From the NCBI RefSeq assembly GCF_902813185.1, contig NZ_LR778301.1:248001-312000 (forward strand): DNA of 64,000 bases, written 5' to 3'. A program made the translations under genes and the position numbers. Each line of letters begins with the position of its first letter. Positions within the stretch are counted from its first letter, which is position 1. The notes below the pieces were generated by a model. That model was given only the letters and a program-made list of their open reading frames with translations, made no database searches and was not told where the DNA came from. The stretch is from Denitratisoma oestradiolicum. GTDB lineage: Bacteria; Pseudomonadota; Gammaproteobacteria; Burkholderiales; Rhodocyclaceae. Below, in pieces: positions 31,834-41,239 of the stretch.

Positions 31834-34059
31834 ATGCGCTCCCGCCCCGTCGCCCCCTTGCTGCGGCTCCTTGCCGCGGTCTGGCTGATCGGCGCGGCGC
31901 TGTCGGGCCGGGGCGCGGACGTGGTGCCGCCCCCAGCCGGATCTCGTATCTGCCTGGTCCTCTCCGGCGGCGGCGCCCGGGGCATCGCCCACATCGGCGT
32001 GCTCAAGGCCCTGGAGGAGCAGCGCATTCCCATTCATTGCATTGCCGGCACCAGCATGGGGGCAGTCATCGGCGGCCTCTACGGCGCCGGCTACAGCGCT
32101 GCGGATCTGGAACGGATTGTCGGGGGGCTGGACTGGGGGCCGTTGTTCGACGACCGTCCGCCCCGGCAGGAACTCTCCCAGCAGCGCAAGGAAGAGGATT
32201 TCGATTTCCCCTGGTCCTTTGAAGTGGGCTATGGCAAGGACGGTTTCCGCCTGCCCCGGGGCGCGGTGGGAGGCGTGGGTTTCGAGCGGCTGCTGTCGGA
32301 CCTGACGGCCCGGGTCTCGGCAGCGCAGGATTTCTCCCAGCTGCCAATTCCATTCCGGGCCGTCGCCACCGACCTGGTGAGAGGCGGGAAGGTGGTGTTC
32401 GAGCGGGGCGACCTGGCCCGGGCTTTGCGCGCCAGTATGTCGGTACCGGGGGCCTTCGCCCCCATCGAGGTGGACGGGCGCCTGCTGGGAGACGGCGGCC
32501 TGGTGATGAACCTGCCGGTGGACGTGGCCCTGTCCATGGGGGCTGATGTGGTAGTGGCGGTGAACATCGGCACCCCCCTGGCCCCCCGGGAATCCCTTTC
32601 CAGCCTGGTGGGCGTCACCCACCAGATGATCAACATCCTCACCGAGCAGAATGTGCGCAACCAGTTGGCGCACCTGACCGAACGGGATGTGCTGATCGCG
32701 CCGGAACTCAACAGCATGAGCTTCCTCGACTTTTCCACCGCGCAGAAAGGTATCGCCGCAGGCTACGCCTCAGCCAGCAGTGCGGAGGTACGCCAGAAGC
32801 TGGCGACTCTGGCGCTGGACGATGCCGGCTGGCGGGACCATCTGGTCCGACGCAATTTCCCCCGCGCCCTGGAGGGGAAGCTGGCCTTCGTTCGCGTAGA
32901 AGGTGCCCGGCACAGCAATTCCGACACCCTGCTGGCCCAGACCAGTACCCGCAGCGGCGATCCGGCCGACCCCGGCCGGCTGGAGCGGGACGCGGCCAGC
33001 CTGATGGGGCGGGGTGATTTCGAGCGGGTGGACTATCGCCTGGAACAGGAAGGCGAAAAACTGGGAGCGGTATTCGGTGTCGAGGAAAAAACCTGGGGAC
33101 CCCATTTCTTCCGCCTGGGCCTTTCCGCCTCCACGGATTTTGCCGGTGATGCCAGCTTCGATCTGCTCCTGGGCCATCGTCTGACCTGGGTCAACCCGTG
33201 GGGCGGCGAATGGCGCAACCGGCTCCAATTCGGCCGCACCCGGGGCGTGAGGAGCGAATTCCTGCAACCTCTGGGGCAGGGTGGGCGATTCTTCGTGGCG
33301 CCGAAAGTTGAAGTGGAGCGACGTACCCTGGATGTTTTCCAGGGAGAGCACCGGGTCGCCCAGTGGCAGGGGGGGTTCAACCGGGCCGGGGTGGATCTGG
33401 GCATGCCCTTCGGTCCCTATGGCGAGGCCCGCCTGGGCTATGCCGTTGGCCGCTTCGTTGCCGACCAGTCCATCGGCAGCCTGATTCCCAGCCATGTGGA
33501 TTTCGGCGAACGGGGACTGACCGGCAGCGTGGTGCTGGATCAACTGGACAATGCCGCCCTGCCCCGTACCGGCTGGCGCCTGGCGGGAGACTTTTTCAGC
33601 GCCCGCCAGGCCCTGGTAGCCTACGACAACTACACCCGCTGGCAACTCAACGGCCTGGCCGTGACCAGCGAAGGCCGCAACACCTGGCAGTTCGGCGCCG
33701 AATTCGCCGGCTTCCTGGACCGCAGTCGCATCGGTTACGCCGATTTCCGCCTGGGGGGATTCCAGCGTCTTTCCGGCTATCGGACCGACCAGATCGAGGG
33801 CAACTACCTGGCCCTGGGCAAGGCCGTCTATCGGCGGCGCGTGGCGGAAATCACCCCCTTTGGCCGCGCCGCCTACCTGGGAGCATCCCTGGAACTGGGC
33901 AATGCCTGGGCCGAGCGCCACCAGATGCGCTGGGCTGGTCTGCGCCATGCCGCCAGCGTCTTCGCGGCCGCCGACACGCCTCTGGGGCCGGCCTATATTG
34001 GACTGGGCCTGGCCCAGGGAGGGCACTTCGCGCTCTACCTGTTCCTTGGCCGGCCCTGA
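31834..34059 (+). CDS. Type Vd autotransporter: patatin-like phospholipase with outer-membrane barrel (PlpD-like)
   Basis: The 741-residue protein has a signal sequence, a patatin domain (residues about 38-330), a POTRA-like segment and a C-terminal BamA/Omp85-type barrel. The patatin catalytic pair is intact: oxyanion loop SGGGARG, Ser74 in GTSMG and Asp220 in GDGGL. The barrel carries repeated amphipathic strands and ends FALYLFLGRP. PlpD of Pseudomonas aeruginosa has the same layout and similar length (about 728 residues); it exposes a lipase on the surface. Here an A1-type phospholipase at the surface or released is inferred. It lies 16 bases after ilvD. Confidence 0.88.
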   Translation: MRSRPVAPLLRLLAAVWLIGAALSGRGADVVPPPAGSRICLVLSGGGARGIAHIGVLKALEEQRIPIHCIAGTSMGAVIGGLYGAGYSAADLERIVGGLDWGPLFDDRPPRQELSQQRKEEDFDFPWSFEVGYGKDGFRLPRGAVGGVGFERLLSDLTARVSAAQDFSQLPIPFRAVATDLVRGGKVVFERGDLARALRASMSVPGAFAPIEVDGRLLGDGGLVMNLPVDVALSMGADVVVAVNIGTPLAPRESLSSLVGVTHQMINILTEQNVRNQLAHLTERDVLIAPELNSMSFLDFSTAQKGIAAGYASASSAEVRQKLATLALDDAGWRDHLVRRNFPRALEGKLAFVRVEGARHSNSDTLLAQTSTRSGDPADPGRLERDAASLMGRGDFERVDYRLEQEGEKLGAVFGVEEKTWGPHFFRLGLSASTDFAGDASFDLLLGHRLTWVNPWGGEWRNRLQFGRTRGVRSEFLQPLGQGGRFFVAPKVEVERRTLDVFQGEHRVAQWQGGFNRAGVDLGMPFGPYGEARLGYAVGRFVADQSIGSLIPSHVDFGERGLTGSVVLDQLDNAALPRTGWRLAGDFFSARQALVAYDNYTRWQLNGLAVTSEGRNTWQFGAEFAGFLDRSRIGYADFRLGGFQRLSGYRTDQIEGNYLALGKAVYRRRVAEITPFGRAAYLGASLELGNAWAERHQMRWAGLRHAASVFAAADTPLGPAYIGLGLAQGGHFALYLFLGRP

Positions 34060-36795: not shown

Positions 36796-38424
36796 ATGCA
36801 CCAATCCATCCGACCTATATGCCGTATTTCGGCGCTGCTGCTTACCTTCACCGCCCTGTTTGCCATTGCGGCCCGGGCTGACGAGGTCGACAAGCCCCGG
36901 ACTTTCCGGGTGGAGCGCTTTCAAGTGGAGGGCAACAGCCTCCTGCCCTCCGACGCCATCGCCAGTGTCGTGGCGCCCTTTGGTGGCGGGGCGCGCCAGT
37001 TGAGCGATCTGTATGGGGCGGCGGAAGCTCTGCAAACCCTCTATCGAGAGGCCGGCTATCCGGTGGTGCAGGTGGCCCTGCCGGAGCAGAAGCTGGATGA
37101 TGGCGTGGTGCAGTTGAGGGTCATCGAGGGCCGTTTCAAGGAAATCCAGGTTAACGGTAACAAGGAGTACAGCAGCGAGCAGATTCGCACTTCCCTGCCC
37201 AGCCTGAAGGAGGGTACCAGTCCCCAGGTGCGGCAACTGGACCGGGATATTCGCCAGGCCAACGAGAATCCCGGCCGCCGCCTGGCGGTCAATCTCCAGC
37301 CTGGCGGTGCTCTGGGGGAGATCAAGGCCCGGGTGGACGTCAGTGACGAGAAGATCGAACGCTATCTCGCCACGCTGGACAATACGGGCACCCGCCAGAC
37401 AGGTTTCTGGCGCCTGGGCCTGGGCTACCAGCATGCCAACGTGGCCCAGCGCCAGCATGTGTTCAGCTTCCAGTACGTCACTGCGCCGGAGCGCCTGAAG
37501 GACGTTCAGGTACTCAGTGCCGGTTACCGCATTCCCCTGCCGGCCCAGGCCAGCAGTCTGGACCTGATGATGGCCTATTCCAATGTCAAGGCGGGGGTGA
37601 CGCCCACCGTGGTGGGTTCCCTGTTCTTCGCCGGGGAAGGCGCCATCTTCGGCATCAAGCTGACCCGGCGCCTGGAAAGCCTGCCGGAATGGGAACACAA
37701 GCTGAGCCTGGGCCTGGACATCAAGGATTTCCGCAACGAATGCGCTCTGGGCGTTTTTGGTGCTGCCGGCTGCGGGGAAGCAGGGGCCAGCATTGCCCTG
37801 CACCCGGTCACCGTCGGCTACAGCGGCGGCCTGGTCCAGCCGGCCATGCAAGCCCAGTGGAACCTCAGTTGGAGCCGCAATCTGCCTGGTGGCGGCCGGG
37901 GTGGCCGGGAGGATTTCATCACCGCCCGGGCACTTTCCAACCCCCATTTCAGCGTATTGAGGGCCGGTGCTTCCGCTCAGTGGCCACTGATGAGTCAATG
38001 GATGCTGCGTCTGGGCGGGCAGTTGCAGGACACACGGGATGCCCTGGTGATGGCGGAACAATTCGGCGTGGGCGGCGCCCAGAGCGTAAGGGGGTATGCC
38101 GAACGGGCTGCCAGCAATGACCGGGGCTACTCCATGAATCTGGAGTTCTACACGCCTGACCTGTCCAACTGGCTGAACGTGAGCAATGCCTCGCTACGGG
38201 GCCTGCTCTTCCTGGACAGCGGCACCCTGTTCCGCAACCGTCGACTGGCAACGGAAACTGGCGAGACGGCCGGCACCCGGCTCACCAGCGTCGGCATCGG
38301 CCTGCGCGCCAGCCTTGGGAAAAACTGGTCCATCGTCTCCGACCTGGGTCATGTGATGGAAACCACCTCCGGCCGAGCACAGGGAGCCCAGCATGTCCAT
38401 TTCAGCCTCAATGGCACCTTCTGA
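36796..38424 (+). CDS. Two-partner secretion outer-membrane transporter (TpsB; ShlB/FhaC/HecB family)
   Basis: The 542-residue protein has a signal peptide (SALLLTFTALFAIAARA), a POTRA region (FRVERFQVEGNSLLPSDAI and VIEGRFKEIQVNG) and a C-terminal 16-strand barrel. The loop 6 motif VRGY (SVRGYAERA) and the partner LLFLDSG are present. It should thread the neighbouring TpsA exoprotein through the outer membrane without energy input. Its stop lies 13 bases before the exoprotein ATG, so the pair is surely co-transcribed. Confidence 0.94.
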   Translation: MHQSIRPICRISALLLTFTALFAIAARADEVDKPRTFRVERFQVEGNSLLPSDAIASVVAPFGGGARQLSDLYGAAEALQTLYREAGYPVVQVALPEQKLDDGVVQLRVIEGRFKEIQVNGNKEYSSEQIRTSLPSLKEGTSPQVRQLDRDIRQANENPGRRLAVNLQPGGALGEIKARVDVSDEKIERYLATLDNTGTRQTGFWRLGLGYQHANVAQRQHVFSFQYVTAPERLKDVQVLSAGYRIPLPAQASSLDLMMAYSNVKAGVTPTVVGSLFFAGEGAIFGIKLTRRLESLPEWEHKLSLGLDIKDFRNECALGVFGAAGCGEAGASIALHPVTVGYSGGLVQPAMQAQWNLSWSRNLPGGGRGGREDFITARALSNPHFSVLRAGASAQWPLMSQWMLRLGGQLQDTRDALVMAEQFGVGGAQSVRGYAERAASNDRGYSMNLEFYTPDLSNWLNVSNASLRGLLFLDSGTLFRNRRLATETGETAGTRLTSVGIGLRASLGKNWSIVSDLGHVMETTSGRAQGAQHVHFSLNGTF

Positions 38425-38437
38425 GGATCGCCGGACC

Positions 38438-41239
38438 ATGAGCTCATATCCATCTTCTCCTCGCTACCTTGCCGCCGTCCTGGCCCTGGCCCTGGCACCG
38501 CTGCCGGTCCTGGCCAATCCCACCCTGCCCACTGTGATCAGTGGCCAGGCCAGTTTCCAGAACGGAGGCAATACCCTGTCGGTCCGGACCGTCACTCCGG
38601 CCACGATCATCAACTGGCAAGGTTTTTCCATCAATGCCGGCGAGGTTACCCGCTTCGATCAGCCCAGTGCCGCCAGCGCGGTGCTGAACCGGGTGATGGG
38701 CCAGAACCCCAGCCAGATCCTGGGGGCACTGCAATCCAACGGCCGGGTTTTTGTGCTCAACCCAGCTGGCGTGGTTATTGGCAAGGATGCCCAGATCAAT
38801 GTGGCGGGCCTGATGGTCTCGGCCCTTCCCCTGGCGGACGCGGACTTCCTGGCTGGCCGCTGGAATTTCAGTGGTCCGGGAGGAGCGGTAGGCAACGATG
38901 GCAGCATCAATGTCATGGAAGGCGGCGCCGTGCTGCTGATCGGCGACTCGGTCACCAATTCCGGCCTGATCCAGGCGCCCAATGGCCAGGTGGTGCTGGC
39001 TGCCGGCCATAGTGTCACCTTGGCCGAACTGGGCACCCCAAATCTGAGCGTCACCATCAGCGCGGCTACCCAGCAGGTTCTCAACCTGGGGCAGATATTC
39101 AGCCATGGCGGCAGCAGCCGACTCTATGGTGCCCTGGTGCGGGTGGAAGGGCTGGTGAATGCCAATACCGTGGACACCGCCGCCGATGGCACGGTAATCC
39201 TGAGCGCCATTCGCCAGGTGGAACTGGCGCCGGGCGGGCGCATCGAGGGCCGCAAGGTGGGCCTGCAGGGGGAAACCATCAACCTGCGCAGCGGACTGCT
39301 GGGTAGCGAAGGGGTGAAGGCCCAGGCCACCATGAATCTGGTGGTGGATGGGGGCCGCATCGAAGGCCCCAAGGTGGAACTGAACAGCCCGAATCTCAAG
39401 TATGCCGGCCCGGGACCTTTCCCCAATGCCGGTGTCCAGCCCGTCAATAATGTGGTCAATGGCGTGGTGCAGGCTACCCTGCCACCGCCTCCCATCAACC
39501 CGATGCCTGCGGGCATGCTGCCGGGGCAGAACACCCTGCCCATGATGCCGCCGCCCGGTGGCCTGCCTGTGCAACAGCCCGGCGGACTTTCCATTACCGG
39601 TATGCCCCCGCCCCCGTCTGGAATGACCATAGGTGGCATGCCCGGACCCAATATGGGTGGCACTCTTTCCGGATTGCCCCAGCAACCCGGGGGTACCCAG
39701 ATCGGCATGCCCAGACCGCCAGGAAGTGGCGGCCCCATGCCGGGGCAGATGCCCTCTGGCGGTGGCGCCGACATTCAGCAAACTCGTCCCGATTCCATGA
39801 ATTTGGTCCGGCTGGACAGCACGGGAGGCCAGCCCCCGCTGATCTCCGGTGCCAATCCGGCCCCGGCTCCCCAGCCGGGCGTTGCGACCAACCCGTCCCC
39901 GGTGGTGCAGCCTGCCCAGCCTGGACAACCCCTCCCGATCCCCCTGACTGAGCAGAACCCGGTGCCGGGCCAACCCGTGCAACCCGGGTCGGTGGCCCAG
40001 CAACCTGTCGGACAGCCCGGGCAGCAACAGCCTGGGCCAGCACAACCCAACCAGGCTAACCAACCCAATCAACCCAATCAACCCAATCGGCCTAACAACC
40101 AACAGAACCAGCCAGGAAAGCCGGGGGAAGCTGGACAACCTGGTGAACCGGGCAAGCCGGACCCGAGCAAGCCGGACCCGAGCAAGCCGGACCCGAGCAA
40201 GCCGGACCCGAGCAAGCTGCGGCCGGCAGGGGCGGCCAATCAGGGCAAGGGACGACCGGAAGGTGGTCCCGGATTCGGCCGCATCAATATCGCAGCCCTC
40301 AGCCCTGGCATGGCCAGGGCACTGGTGGCCGAACGCCATGCGCTCAAGGCGGAAGTTCTCAAGAGTGCCCTGTCCAGCCTCGAGATCAATCCCCAGGCCG
40401 CCGACATTCCTCCCTGTGGCGCGGGGGGCGGCGAAATCTGCATGGCTGCGGCCCGAACCCAGGCAGCCATGGTCACGACGCCTCGCAACAAGCCCACCGA
40501 ATCCCATCTGCCCCGCATTTCGCGAAAAATCGCCGTGCTGGTGGGCAACGACAATTATCGTGACAAGGCCATCCCTGTCCTGGAGTCCGCCGGTCAGGAT
40601 GCCGAGGCGGTGGGCAAGGTCCTGACGGAGCGTCTGGGCTATGAGGTTCGGGTTTTGCGCGACGCCACCAAGGGCGATATTGTCCGCGCCCTCAACCAAC
40701 TCACCAGCGAAGTGGGGCCCAATGACAGTGTCACGCTCTACTATGCCGGCCACGGCTACCTGTCGGAAAAGAGCCAGGCCGGCTACTGGCTGCCGGTGGA
40801 CGCTGAGGCTACCCGCCCGGACAACTGGATTTCCAACCAGGACATCGCCAAGTATCTGGCCAGCATTCCGGCCAAGCAGGTGATGCTGGTGTCCGACAGT
40901 TGCTTTTCCGGTGCCCTGACCCGGGAGCAGAAGGTCAGTACTGCCCTGACTTCCCGGGATCCCAATACCATCCTCGATCGCCGTTCGGTGGTGGTGCTGA
41001 CTTCCGGCGGCGAGGAGCCCGTGTCGGACGAGGGCAAGGGTGGCCACTCGATCTTTGCCTGGCATTTCATGAAGGCTCTGGAAAAGATCACCAAGTGGAA
41101 TCCCGGGGCCGGTCTCTATGAAAACGTGAAGAACGAGGTCAGCCGGGAGTTTCCCCAGGTGCCACAGTACGGCGCCTCCCTCTCCGCCGGCCATCAGTTG
41201 GGTGGCGACTATCTGCTGGAGCGTCGCCGCTATCGCTGA
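38438..41239 (+). CDS. TpsA-type exoprotein with C-terminal caspase-like protease domain
   Basis: The 933-residue protein has a signal peptide ending PVLA-NP, then a filamentous-hemagglutinin TPS domain (about 28-330; SILGAL-like QSNGRVFVLNPAGVVIG). A long Pro/Gln/Met-rich linker (about 335-610) ends with four PDPSK repeats. A peptidase C14 domain (about 695-925) has an intact dyad: His772 in YYAGHGY and Cys822 in SDSCFSG. The TPS domain implies export through the TpsB encoded 13 bases upstream. Instead of a long adhesive beta-helix, the cargo appears to be an Arg/Lys-type orthocaspase, but cleavage specificity is inferred. Basic residues (RNK, RISRK) just before the protease may be processing sites. 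Confidence 0.9.
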   Translation: MSSYPSSPRYLAAVLALALAPLPVLANPTLPTVISGQASFQNGGNTLSVRTVTPATIINWQGFSINAGEVTRFDQPSAASAVLNRVMGQNPSQILGALQSNGRVFVLNPAGVVIGKDAQINVAGLMVSALPLADADFLAGRWNFSGPGGAVGNDGSINVMEGGAVLLIGDSVTNSGLIQAPNGQVVLAAGHSVTLAELGTPNLSVTISAATQQVLNLGQIFSHGGSSRLYGALVRVEGLVNANTVDTAADGTVILSAIRQVELAPGGRIEGRKVGLQGETINLRSGLLGSEGVKAQATMNLVVDGGRIEGPKVELNSPNLKYAGPGPFPNAGVQPVNNVVNGVVQATLPPPPINPMPAGMLPGQNTLPMMPPPGGLPVQQPGGLSITGMPPPPSGMTIGGMPGPNMGGTLSGLPQQPGGTQIGMPRPPGSGGPMPGQMPSGGGADIQQTRPDSMNLVRLDSTGGQPPLISGANPAPAPQPGVATNPSPVVQPAQPGQPLPIPLTEQNPVPGQPVQPGSVAQQPVGQPGQQQPGPAQPNQANQPNQPNQPNRPNNQQNQPGKPGEAGQPGEPGKPDPSKPDPSKPDPSKPDPSKLRPAGAANQGKGRPEGGPGFGRINIAALSPGMARALVAERHALKAEVLKSALSSLEINPQAADIPPCGAGGGEICMAAARTQAAMVTTPRNKPTESHLPRISRKIAVLVGNDNYRDKAIPVLESAGQDAEAVGKVLTERLGYEVRVLRDATKGDIVRALNQLTSEVGPNDSVTLYYAGHGYLSEKSQAGYWLPVDAEATRPDNWISNQDIAKYLASIPAKQVMLVSDSCFSGALTREQKVSTALTSRDPNTILDRRSVVVLTSGGEEPVSDEGKGGHSIFAWHFMKALEKITKWNPGAGLYENVKNEVSREFPQVPQYGASLSAGHQLGGDYLLERRRYR
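40154..40213 (+). repeat. Four perfect 15-base tandem repeats encoding PDPSK
   Basis: The unit AAGCCGGACCCGAGC occurs four times without a mismatch inside the exoprotein linker. Just upstream, AACCAACCCAAT-like 9-base units encode NQP repeats. Exact tandem copies of a multiple of three allow length change without frameshift. Confidence 0.95.

What the first reader, a model, noticed from the sequence alone, without database searches (positions are those of the whole stretch)
36796..41239. Two-partner secretion system whose exported cargo is a caspase-like protease
Seen: a TpsB transporter, 13 bases, then a protein with a signal peptide, hemagglutinin-type TPS domain, a ~280-residue Pro/Gln linker and a C14 caspase domain with intact His772 and Cys822. 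Known: TPS cargo are mostly adhesins, hemolysins and CDI toxins; bacterial orthocaspases are mostly thought of as intracellular. Inference: this cell secretes or displays a caspase-like protease, possibly self-processing at the basic residues before the domain. Homologues annotated as FHA-N/caspase may exist, but I know of no described function.
Basis: partly seen in the sequence, partly recalled or inferred. Interest (0 to 1): 0.82.

Follow-up and report, generated by a model that had tools for sequence, protein, structure and literature searches.

The report
Caspase-like protease exported by two-partner secretion
This bacterium carries a gene pair that looks built to export a caspase-like cutting enzyme through its outer membrane, and similar pairs in other bacteria suggest this is a real family rather than an accident.

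Summary
ORF 36796-38424 is a TpsB transporter; 13 bases later, ORF 38438-41239 (933 aa) joins a TPS domain, a ~295-residue P/G/Q-rich linker and a C-terminal caspase (C14) with intact His772/Cys822. Three of the 4 TpsA proteins found in this genome end in C14. I found 22 distinct TPS+C14 proteins, 19 with an adjacent TpsB; 22 of 22 keep the dyad.

New evidence is cysteine use: in 20 fusions 106 of 127 mature Cys form close pairs (<=11 residues apart); the other 21 are the 20 catalytic Cys plus one. That fits an oxidising export route that keeps one reactive thiol.

Best reading: an exported, probably Arg/Lys-specific orthocaspase, itself the cargo here. Unresolved: whether the caspase ends outside the cell or in the periplasm, and what it cuts. 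No immunity gene recurs, against a CDI-type toxin. My 10 full-text searches (capped listings) showed no TPS-exported caspase. A related stand-alone caspase lies in a conserved envelope-gene row.

The parts
36796..38424 (+). tpsB: outer-membrane TPS transporter, 542 aa (POTRA + ShlB/FhaC barrel)
   Evidence: Pfam ShlB E 1.1e-20, POTRA_2 E 1.8e-18
38425..38437 (+). 13-base gap; GAGG at 38423-38426 overlaps the tpsB stop and lies 11 bases before the tpsA ATG (possible ribosome-binding site, read by eye)
38438..41239 (+). tpsA-caspase fusion, 933 aa
38438..38515 (+). probable signal peptide, residues 1-26
   Evidence: read by eye from the translation; no predictor available
38543..39205 (+). TPS secretion domain, residues 36-256
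   Evidence: PF05860 E 4.8e-32; 2odl 1.8e-37
39428..40312 (+). Pro/Gly/Gln-rich low-complexity linker, residues 331-625
   Evidence: 64% P/Q/G/N/S over residues 331-620; no Pfam match at E <= 0.1 between the TPS and C14 domains
40313..40507 (+). conserved pre-domain before the caspase, residues 626-690, with Cys660 and Cys668
   Evidence: both Cys invariant in 8 of 8 rows of A1; each is C in 28 of 44 rows of A3, with 12 and 9 rows gapped there
40523..41179 (+). Peptidase C14 (caspase) domain, residues 696-914
   Evidence: PF00656 E 5.4e-27
40751..40753 (+). catalytic His772
   Evidence: H in 44 of 44 aligned modules
40901..40903 (+). catalytic Cys822, the only unpaired cysteine of the protein
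   Evidence: C in 44 of 44 aligned modules

Best explanation
This is a two-partner secretion pair whose exported protein carries a catalytically intact orthocaspase as its payload. The protein crosses the inner membrane by Sec, the TPS domain docks on the TpsB next door, and the C-terminal pre-domain plus caspase is exported on a flexible linker as an Arg/Lys-specific cysteine protease acting outside the cytoplasm, most likely at the cell surface or shed, on envelope, matrix or foreign proteins. Shown from sequence: the domains, gene pairing, dyad, conserved acidic residues, recurrence and the cysteine pattern. Inferred: secretion itself, activity, P1 specificity, final side of the outer membrane, and substrate.
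For: Domains over curated cut-offs. Three of four TpsAs in the genome have the same C-terminal module, each beside a TpsB. 22 distinct fusions, 19 with adjacent TpsB and in both gene orders. Catalytic His and Cys in 22 of 22. Asp721 and Asp820 are D in 44 of 44 modules; Asp721 aligns with the corresponding Asp of metacaspase-1 and MALT1, while Asp820, two residues before the catalytic Cys, lies outside the aligned stretch and its pocket role is recalled. Cysteines: in 20 fusions 53 close pairs, and the catalytic Cys is the only unpaired one in 19 of 20 (cut-off <=11); in the two Azospirillum fusions it is the only Cys after the signal-peptide region. At the <=10 cut-off 31 of 127 Cys are unpaired against 118 expected at random. 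In the window protein little but linker lies between TPS and caspase, so the protease is the obvious cargo. The clade of 14 fusions that holds the window has support 99/98.
Against: 3 of 22 fusions show no adjacent TpsB: L158 lies on a 5.3 kb contig with about 1.5 kb of upstream DNA and none found there, and the two Azospirillum plasmid genes have none within about 7 kb upstream and 12 kb downstream by my profile. One fusion (L097) has a second unpaired Cys. With the first cut-off tried (<=10) only 14 of 20 fit the strict pattern; the cut-off was widened after seeing that the pre-domain pair can be 11 apart. The random control ignores kinship. C-termini of some TpsA proteins stay in the periplasm (PMC5422565, passages), so surface location is not shown. 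Fusions look rare in the family: found in 8 of 395 genomes drawn, a lower bound (regions read).
Confidence: 0.7

Rival explanations
1. The N-terminal part is exported but the C-terminal pre-domain and caspase stay in the periplasm, where the protease cuts its own protein or neighbours to release the exported part or respond to envelope stress: a TpsA with a built-in LapG-like release protease.
For: C-terminal periplasmic retention by a disulfide loop (HMW1, HxuA) and release of CdrA by the periplasmic protease LapG are known (PMC5422565, passages). The pre-domain carries a conserved close Cys pair. Orthocaspases are reported to autoprocess on expression in E. coli (PMC5756287, passage). In longer fusions (up to 3347 aa) there is a large exported body to release.
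Against: Similar close Cys pairs are spread along the bodies of many other fusions, and stand-alone caspases without a TPS domain have the same pair (11 of 11 listed), so the pair is not a specific hook. The window protein has hardly any body to release.
Confidence: 0.2
2. It is a CDI/polymorphic-type toxin: the C-terminal caspase is delivered into competing bacteria, with an immunity protein protecting kin.
For: C-terminal caspases are proposed as toxin domains in polymorphic toxins carried by other secretion routes (PMC3482391, passages). The module sits at the extreme C-terminus.
Against: No gene family recurs in more than 4 of 19 fusion loci within 4 kb (some loci hold less flank); the larger clusters read as generic regulators, kinases or a CHASE2-cyclase (one kinase and one CHASE2 member scanned). 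In the window the next ORF opens within the tpsA stop codon. The C-terminus is conserved rather than polymorphic, and no pre-toxin Pfam domain was found in the window protein.
Confidence: 0.07
3. The caspase fold is kept as a binding or structural tip with no proteolysis.
For: Pseudo-orthocaspases without the dyad exist (PMC6426788, abstract in listing).
Against: Dyad intact in 22 of 22 fusions and in 44 of 44 aligned modules; the catalytic Cys is the cysteine left unpaired.
Confidence: 0.03

Closest known systems
LepA/LepB of Pseudomonas aeruginosa (TPS-exported protease)
   Same: A protease exported as a TpsA by its own TpsB; the one entry seen under PROTEASES in the TPS table of PMC5422565 (passages).
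   Different: LepA is a different protease type (trypsin-like serine protease, recalled), not a caspase-fold cysteine protease.
Prokaryotic orthocaspases / metacaspases (Peptidase C14), e.g. MaOC1
   Same: C14 domain by profile, HC dyad, conserved acidic residues.
   Different: MaOC1 is a caspase homologue of Microcystis reported to cleave an antitoxin (PMC7935541, title, start of abstract, one passage); here the domain is fused to a TPS secretion domain and the cysteines are close pairs plus the catalytic one. Extracellular localisation as such is not new for C14 proteins: PMC3501461 assigns 30 of 671 sequences to it and suspects signal peptides in others (passages).
Polymorphic-toxin caspase domains (Tox-Caspase, PMC3482391)
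   Same: Caspase at the C-terminus of a large exported protein.
   Different: Listed there with T2SS, T6SS, T7SS, PVC and TcdB/TcaC routes; the T5SS row lists only HINT as processing protease (passages; about 300,000 of 357,715 characters of that paper are held). No recurrent immunity gene here.
FHA/HMW1/CdrA-type TPS adhesins
   Same: TPS domain and TpsB.
   Different: The window protein lacks a long repeat body; low-complexity linker and caspase instead.

Membership tests
Two-partner secretion (type Vb) | TpsB with POTRA and ShlB/FhaC barrel | tested here: met
   Pfam ShlB 1.1e-20, POTRA_2 1.8e-18
Two-partner secretion (type Vb) | TpsA with N-terminal TPS domain | tested here: met
   PF05860 4.8e-32; phmmer to solved TPS proteins
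Two-partner secretion (type Vb) | Sec signal peptide | tested here: inconclusive
   typical sequence read by eye; no predictor in the tool set
Two-partner secretion (type Vb) | TpsB-dependent secretion | not testable with these tools
   needs a mutant and secretome
Peptidase C14 / orthocaspase | C14 domain over curated cut-off | tested here: met
   PF00656 95.4 bits against cut-off 21.4
Peptidase C14 / orthocaspase | His-Cys dyad | tested here: met
   H772, C822; 44 of 44 modules
Peptidase C14 / orthocaspase | acidic S1 pocket for Arg/Lys | tested here: inconclusive
   D721 and D820 are D in 44 of 44 modules; D721 aligns with metacaspase-1 and MALT1; D820 is outside that alignment, its pocket role is recalled, and no structure could be made
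Peptidase C14 / orthocaspase | proteolytic activity after Arg/Lys | not testable with these tools
   needs enzyme assay
Caspase, EACC1-associated type (NCBIfam NF047832) | score over NCBIfam cut-off | tested here: not met
   75.4 bits against 140
CDI / polymorphic toxin (CdiA type) | immunity gene beside the toxin end | tested here: not met
   no family shared by more than 4 of 19 loci within 4 kb, some with less flank
CDI / polymorphic toxin (CdiA type) | variable C-terminal toxin after a pre-toxin domain | tested here: not met
   C-terminal module conserved (43-58% identity to the window in A1); no pre-toxin Pfam domain in the window protein
FHA-type filamentous adhesin | long repeat body after TPS domain | tested here: not met
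   residues 331-620 low-complexity, no Pfam repeats

The most novel reading that the evidence does not exclude
Exported orthocaspases are a general envelope/surface proteolytic module of Pseudomonadota carried by at least three scaffolds: TPS exoproteins, a stand-alone secreted form in a conserved gene row with an outer-membrane barrel, and DUF4347/cadherin/Ig proteins. Caspase chemistry is thus used outside the cytoplasm, in proteins built so that the only free thiol is the catalytic one.
Probability: 0.4. Interest if true: 0.8.

Novelty: new variant of a known kind. Interest (0 to 1): 0.6.

Why it matters
Bacterial caspase homologues are mostly discussed as intracellular stress or death proteases (recalled), although a 2012 survey already placed some outside the cell (PMC3501461, passages). 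A TPS-exported family, three copies strong in one genome, would give caspase chemistry a named export machine, add a second kind of TPS-borne protease beside LepA, and make the role of C14 genes in betaproteobacteria directly testable. Extracellular protein degradation (PMC4933709, passage) and action on neighbouring cells in a fratricidal fashion (PMC3501461, passage) have been speculated.

Tried and rejected

Independent repeated fusion of TPS and caspase. The first tree needed 8 changes of the TPS label, a number swollen by L161 (the same gene as L068, labelled 'long' there) and by contig-cut rows. The second, careful tree needs 3 changes, and 0% of 200 bootstrap trees have 1, but one clade of all 18 fusion rows tested is not rejected (p-AU 0.216, log-likelihood 12.3 lower). 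So several origins are suggested, not shown. Before the second tree I dropped 37 of 99 rows: contig-cut rows, the duplicate, long branches (L187 and L097, both fusions; L094, L113, L114), L188, and the distant rows L102-L132. Six ORFs without the exact motif were not in the first tree either. The DUF4347 label in the trees was given by locus range; only 4 proteins of that kind were scanned and confirmed, of which L178 is not in the trees (L177, L178, L186, L173).

Immunity-gene hypothesis: no support.

Defence-system membership: only the generic PADLOC caspase model matches, at 38 bits; not pursued.

TPS + CHAT-domain precedent (recalled lead): no paper held both terms. Not checked in genomes.

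Linker as a conserved feature: its composition differs widely (P/Q, T/P, A/E/K, S/T), entropy of the 120 residues before the module runs from 2.78 to 3.93 bits, and 11 of 20 fusions show no low-complexity stretch directly before the module by the measure used; dropped as a defining feature.

Literature: (all 10 searches; one search was on CdiA/FhaB topology). From the listings, and passages of PMC3482391, PMC3501461, PMC4933709, PMC7935541, PMC5422565, PMC8283722 and PMC5756287, I saw no description of a TPS-exported caspase. Only 20 of 226, 20 of 125, 20 of 68, 20 of 43, 20 of 21, 8 of 73 and 10 of 11 papers were listed; supplements and most subscription papers were not searched.

Full report
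1. The observation. The tpsB ORF 36796-38424 (542 aa) and the ORF 38438-41239 (933 aa) are as described. TpsB scores over the Pfam cut-offs for ShlB and POTRA_2; the partner scores over cut-off for the TPS domain (36-256, E 4.8e-32) and Peptidase C14 (696-914, E 5.4e-27). Solved TPS proteins are hit at 1.8e-37 (2odl), 2e-30 (EtpA) and 2.7e-24 (heme/hemopexin-binding protein), and MALT1 and metacaspase-1 at 4.2e-6 and 0.01. With a 44-row profile of the C14 module the best solved hits are metacaspase-1 9.7e-14 and MALT1 1.7e-13. The gap between the genes is 13 bases. Residues 331-620 are 64% P/Q/G/N/S. This is far beyond chance.

2. In the same genome. The window is G000:C1:248001-312000 of a 4.29 Mb genome in two contigs. 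That genome has 5 C14 matches, 4 TPS-domain matches and 4 ShlB matches. Three of the four TpsA proteins end in C14: the window protein, a 1499-aa protein (L014:5448-9947) and a 1716-aa protein (L015:7736-12886), with TpsB 13, 12 and 26 bases away. The fourth TpsA (2498 aa) has no C14 match. The other two C14 genes are a 380-aa stand-alone protein and a C14 + FGE-sulfatase protein.

3. Elsewhere. A scan of genome contigs with the module alignment A1 gave 285 pattern matches, 200 relatives, the best 80 kept. Among those 80 loci, 9 are TPS+C14 fusions by my profiles: a Rhodocyclaceae MAG, a Sterolibacterium MAG, Pseudoduganella rivuli, P. ginsengisoli and P. danionis, a Burkholderiales MAG, a Propionivibrio MAG, Azospirillum griseum and Ca. 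Accumulibacter aalborgensis. Unnamed-genome searches added L157 and L158 (one genome) and L159, and L162, L163, L165, L166 and L187. The plasmid collection added Azospirillum lipoferum 4B and Azospirillum sp. B510. With the three own proteins that is 22 distinct fusions; second fetches of the same gene (L049, L051, L052, L161) are not counted. Two further Azospirillum plasmid hits (A. ramasamyi, A. oryzae) were listed but not fetched. TpsB lies adjacent in 19 of 22. The exceptions are L158 (5.3 kb contig, about 1.5 kb upstream held) and the two Azospirillum plasmids (none within about 7 kb upstream and 12 kb downstream). Order is TpsB-TpsA in 17 and TpsA-TpsB in 2 of the 19. Contig-cut candidates L050/L070, L079, L087, L098, L100 and L101 are left out.

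4. How common. In a draw of 395 genomes of the family, 45 have the module at E <= 1e-70. Of the 15 matches in frames of 600 aa or more, 11 are TPS fusions (in 8 genomes), 1 is contig-cut and 3 lack a TPS domain. In a class draw of 369 genomes 37 match at 1e-40. Apart from the own genome, 3 were read with wide flanks (2 with fusions, 1 stand-alone), and 5 more only with short flanks, without a TPS match in what was held. In a phylum draw of 398 genomes, 26 match at 1e-50; of 38 matches 20 were read in that step and 1 is a TPS fusion. Each of these searches scored at most 5 candidates a genome, so counts are lower bounds.

5. Catalysis. His and Cys are present in 22 of 22 fusions. In 44 aligned modules (A3) D721, A770, H772, D820 and C822 are invariant. 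Passages of PMC5756287 state that C14 members other than animal caspases prefer Arg/Lys because of an acidic pocket. D721 aligns with an Asp of metacaspase-1 and MALT1. The printed alignments to solved structures do not cover the catalytic-Cys segment, so the role of D820 rests on recalled structural knowledge.

6. Cysteines. Counting from the start of the TPS domain, 20 fusions hold 127 Cys. At a pairing distance <=10, 48 pairs form and 31 Cys are unpaired, against 118 expected when positions are random (minimum 103 in 5000 draws); 14 of 20 have only the catalytic Cys left. At <=11, 53 pairs form and 21 are unpaired; 19 of 20 have only the catalytic Cys left, and this does not change up to <=20. 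At <=6 and <=8 only 2 and 8 of 20 fit. The wider cut-off was chosen after the first result. The two Azospirillum fusions have the catalytic Cys as their only Cys after the signal-peptide region. L097 is the one exception. The sequences are related, so the random control is not a strict test. The catalytic Cys is in no close pair at any cut-off tried. This pattern is what one expects of proteins that pass an oxidising periplasm and must keep one reactive thiol. All 11 stand-alone caspases listed show one close pair before the domain plus the catalytic Cys, some with further Cys near the N-terminus.

7. Relationships. In a careful tree of 62 modules the window's module sits in a clade of 14 TPS fusions with support 99/98. 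The own paralogue L014 falls elsewhere. The best tree has 3 changes of the TPS label and no bootstrap tree has 1, but a single clade of all 18 fusions tested is not rejected (p-AU 0.216). The sister-type modules are stand-alone caspases with the same pre-domain.

8. Surroundings. Around 19 fusion loci no gene family recurs in more than 4 within 4 kb, some loci holding less flank; the recurring ones read as response regulators, protein kinases and a CHASE2-cyclase (one kinase and one CHASE2 member scanned). The window's own neighbours read as a GGDEF-EAL protein ending 59 bases upstream and a thioredoxin-domain protein directly downstream (domain names recognised by eye, not scanned).

9. Mechanism. 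Likely route: Sec export, TPS domain to TpsB, secretion, then an exported protease on a flexible linker. In the window protein the caspase is the only recognised domain besides the secretion domain, so it is best read as the cargo. In longer relatives (up to 3347 aa) it could instead act on, or be displayed by, the exported body. Two points stay open: whether the C-terminus leaves the periplasm (HMW1 and HxuA keep theirs inside by a disulfide loop, and CdrA is released by the periplasmic LapG; PMC5422565 passages), and what is cut. Self-processing is plausible, since orthocaspases autoprocess in E. coli (PMC5756287 passage), but untested.

10. Known or new. TPS and C14 are both known families; the domain-level membership tests are met for each, while signal peptide and S1 pocket stay inconclusive. 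Their combination is present in public records without being named: the Azospirillum proteins are annotated as FHA N-terminal proteins only. PMC3482391 lists caspase domains in toxins of other secretion routes and only HINT for T5SS (passages). PMC5422565 has 0 mentions of caspase; PMC3501461 has 0 of 'haemagg' and 'hemagglutin', but it does place 30 of 671 C14 sequences outside the cell, so extracellular caspases as such were suspected. I therefore call it a new variant of a known kind. On checking I lowered interest slightly (0.62 to 0.60) for that last point.

Noticed in passing
L017:7670-11422 (own genome C1:169669-173421) and 22 further loci: The stand-alone caspase lies in a conserved gene row: small secreted-looking protein without Pfam match in the 2 scanned (19 of 23 loci), barrel-type protein (23 of 23), weak alpha/beta-hydrolase-like protein with a lipoprotein-like start (19 of 23), caspase; a family scanned as CHASE2-cyclase in two members recurs upstream in 12 of 23. 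Only the own-genome barrel scored over cut-off (Autotransporter beta-domain); the L053 one had no Pfam match.
   Followed up: partly
   Followed up: partly
L016:3549-11045: The fourth TpsA of the genome (2498 aa, no caspase) has a C-terminal array of cysteines spaced mostly 9 and 10 residues apart (residues about 2004-2355).
   Followed up: no
L018:5568-7646: A fifth C14 gene of this genome is fused to an FGE-sulfatase domain.
   Followed up: no
window 31834-34059: Patatin-like protein with what reads as a C-terminal outer-membrane barrel, upstream of the pair (read from the ORF; not scanned).
   Followed up: no
L189:7405-12714, L190:7483-12714: Azospirillum plasmid TPS+C14 genes without a TpsB nearby, between a ParA-type gene and hmgA; the partner may be unlinked.
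   Followed up: partly
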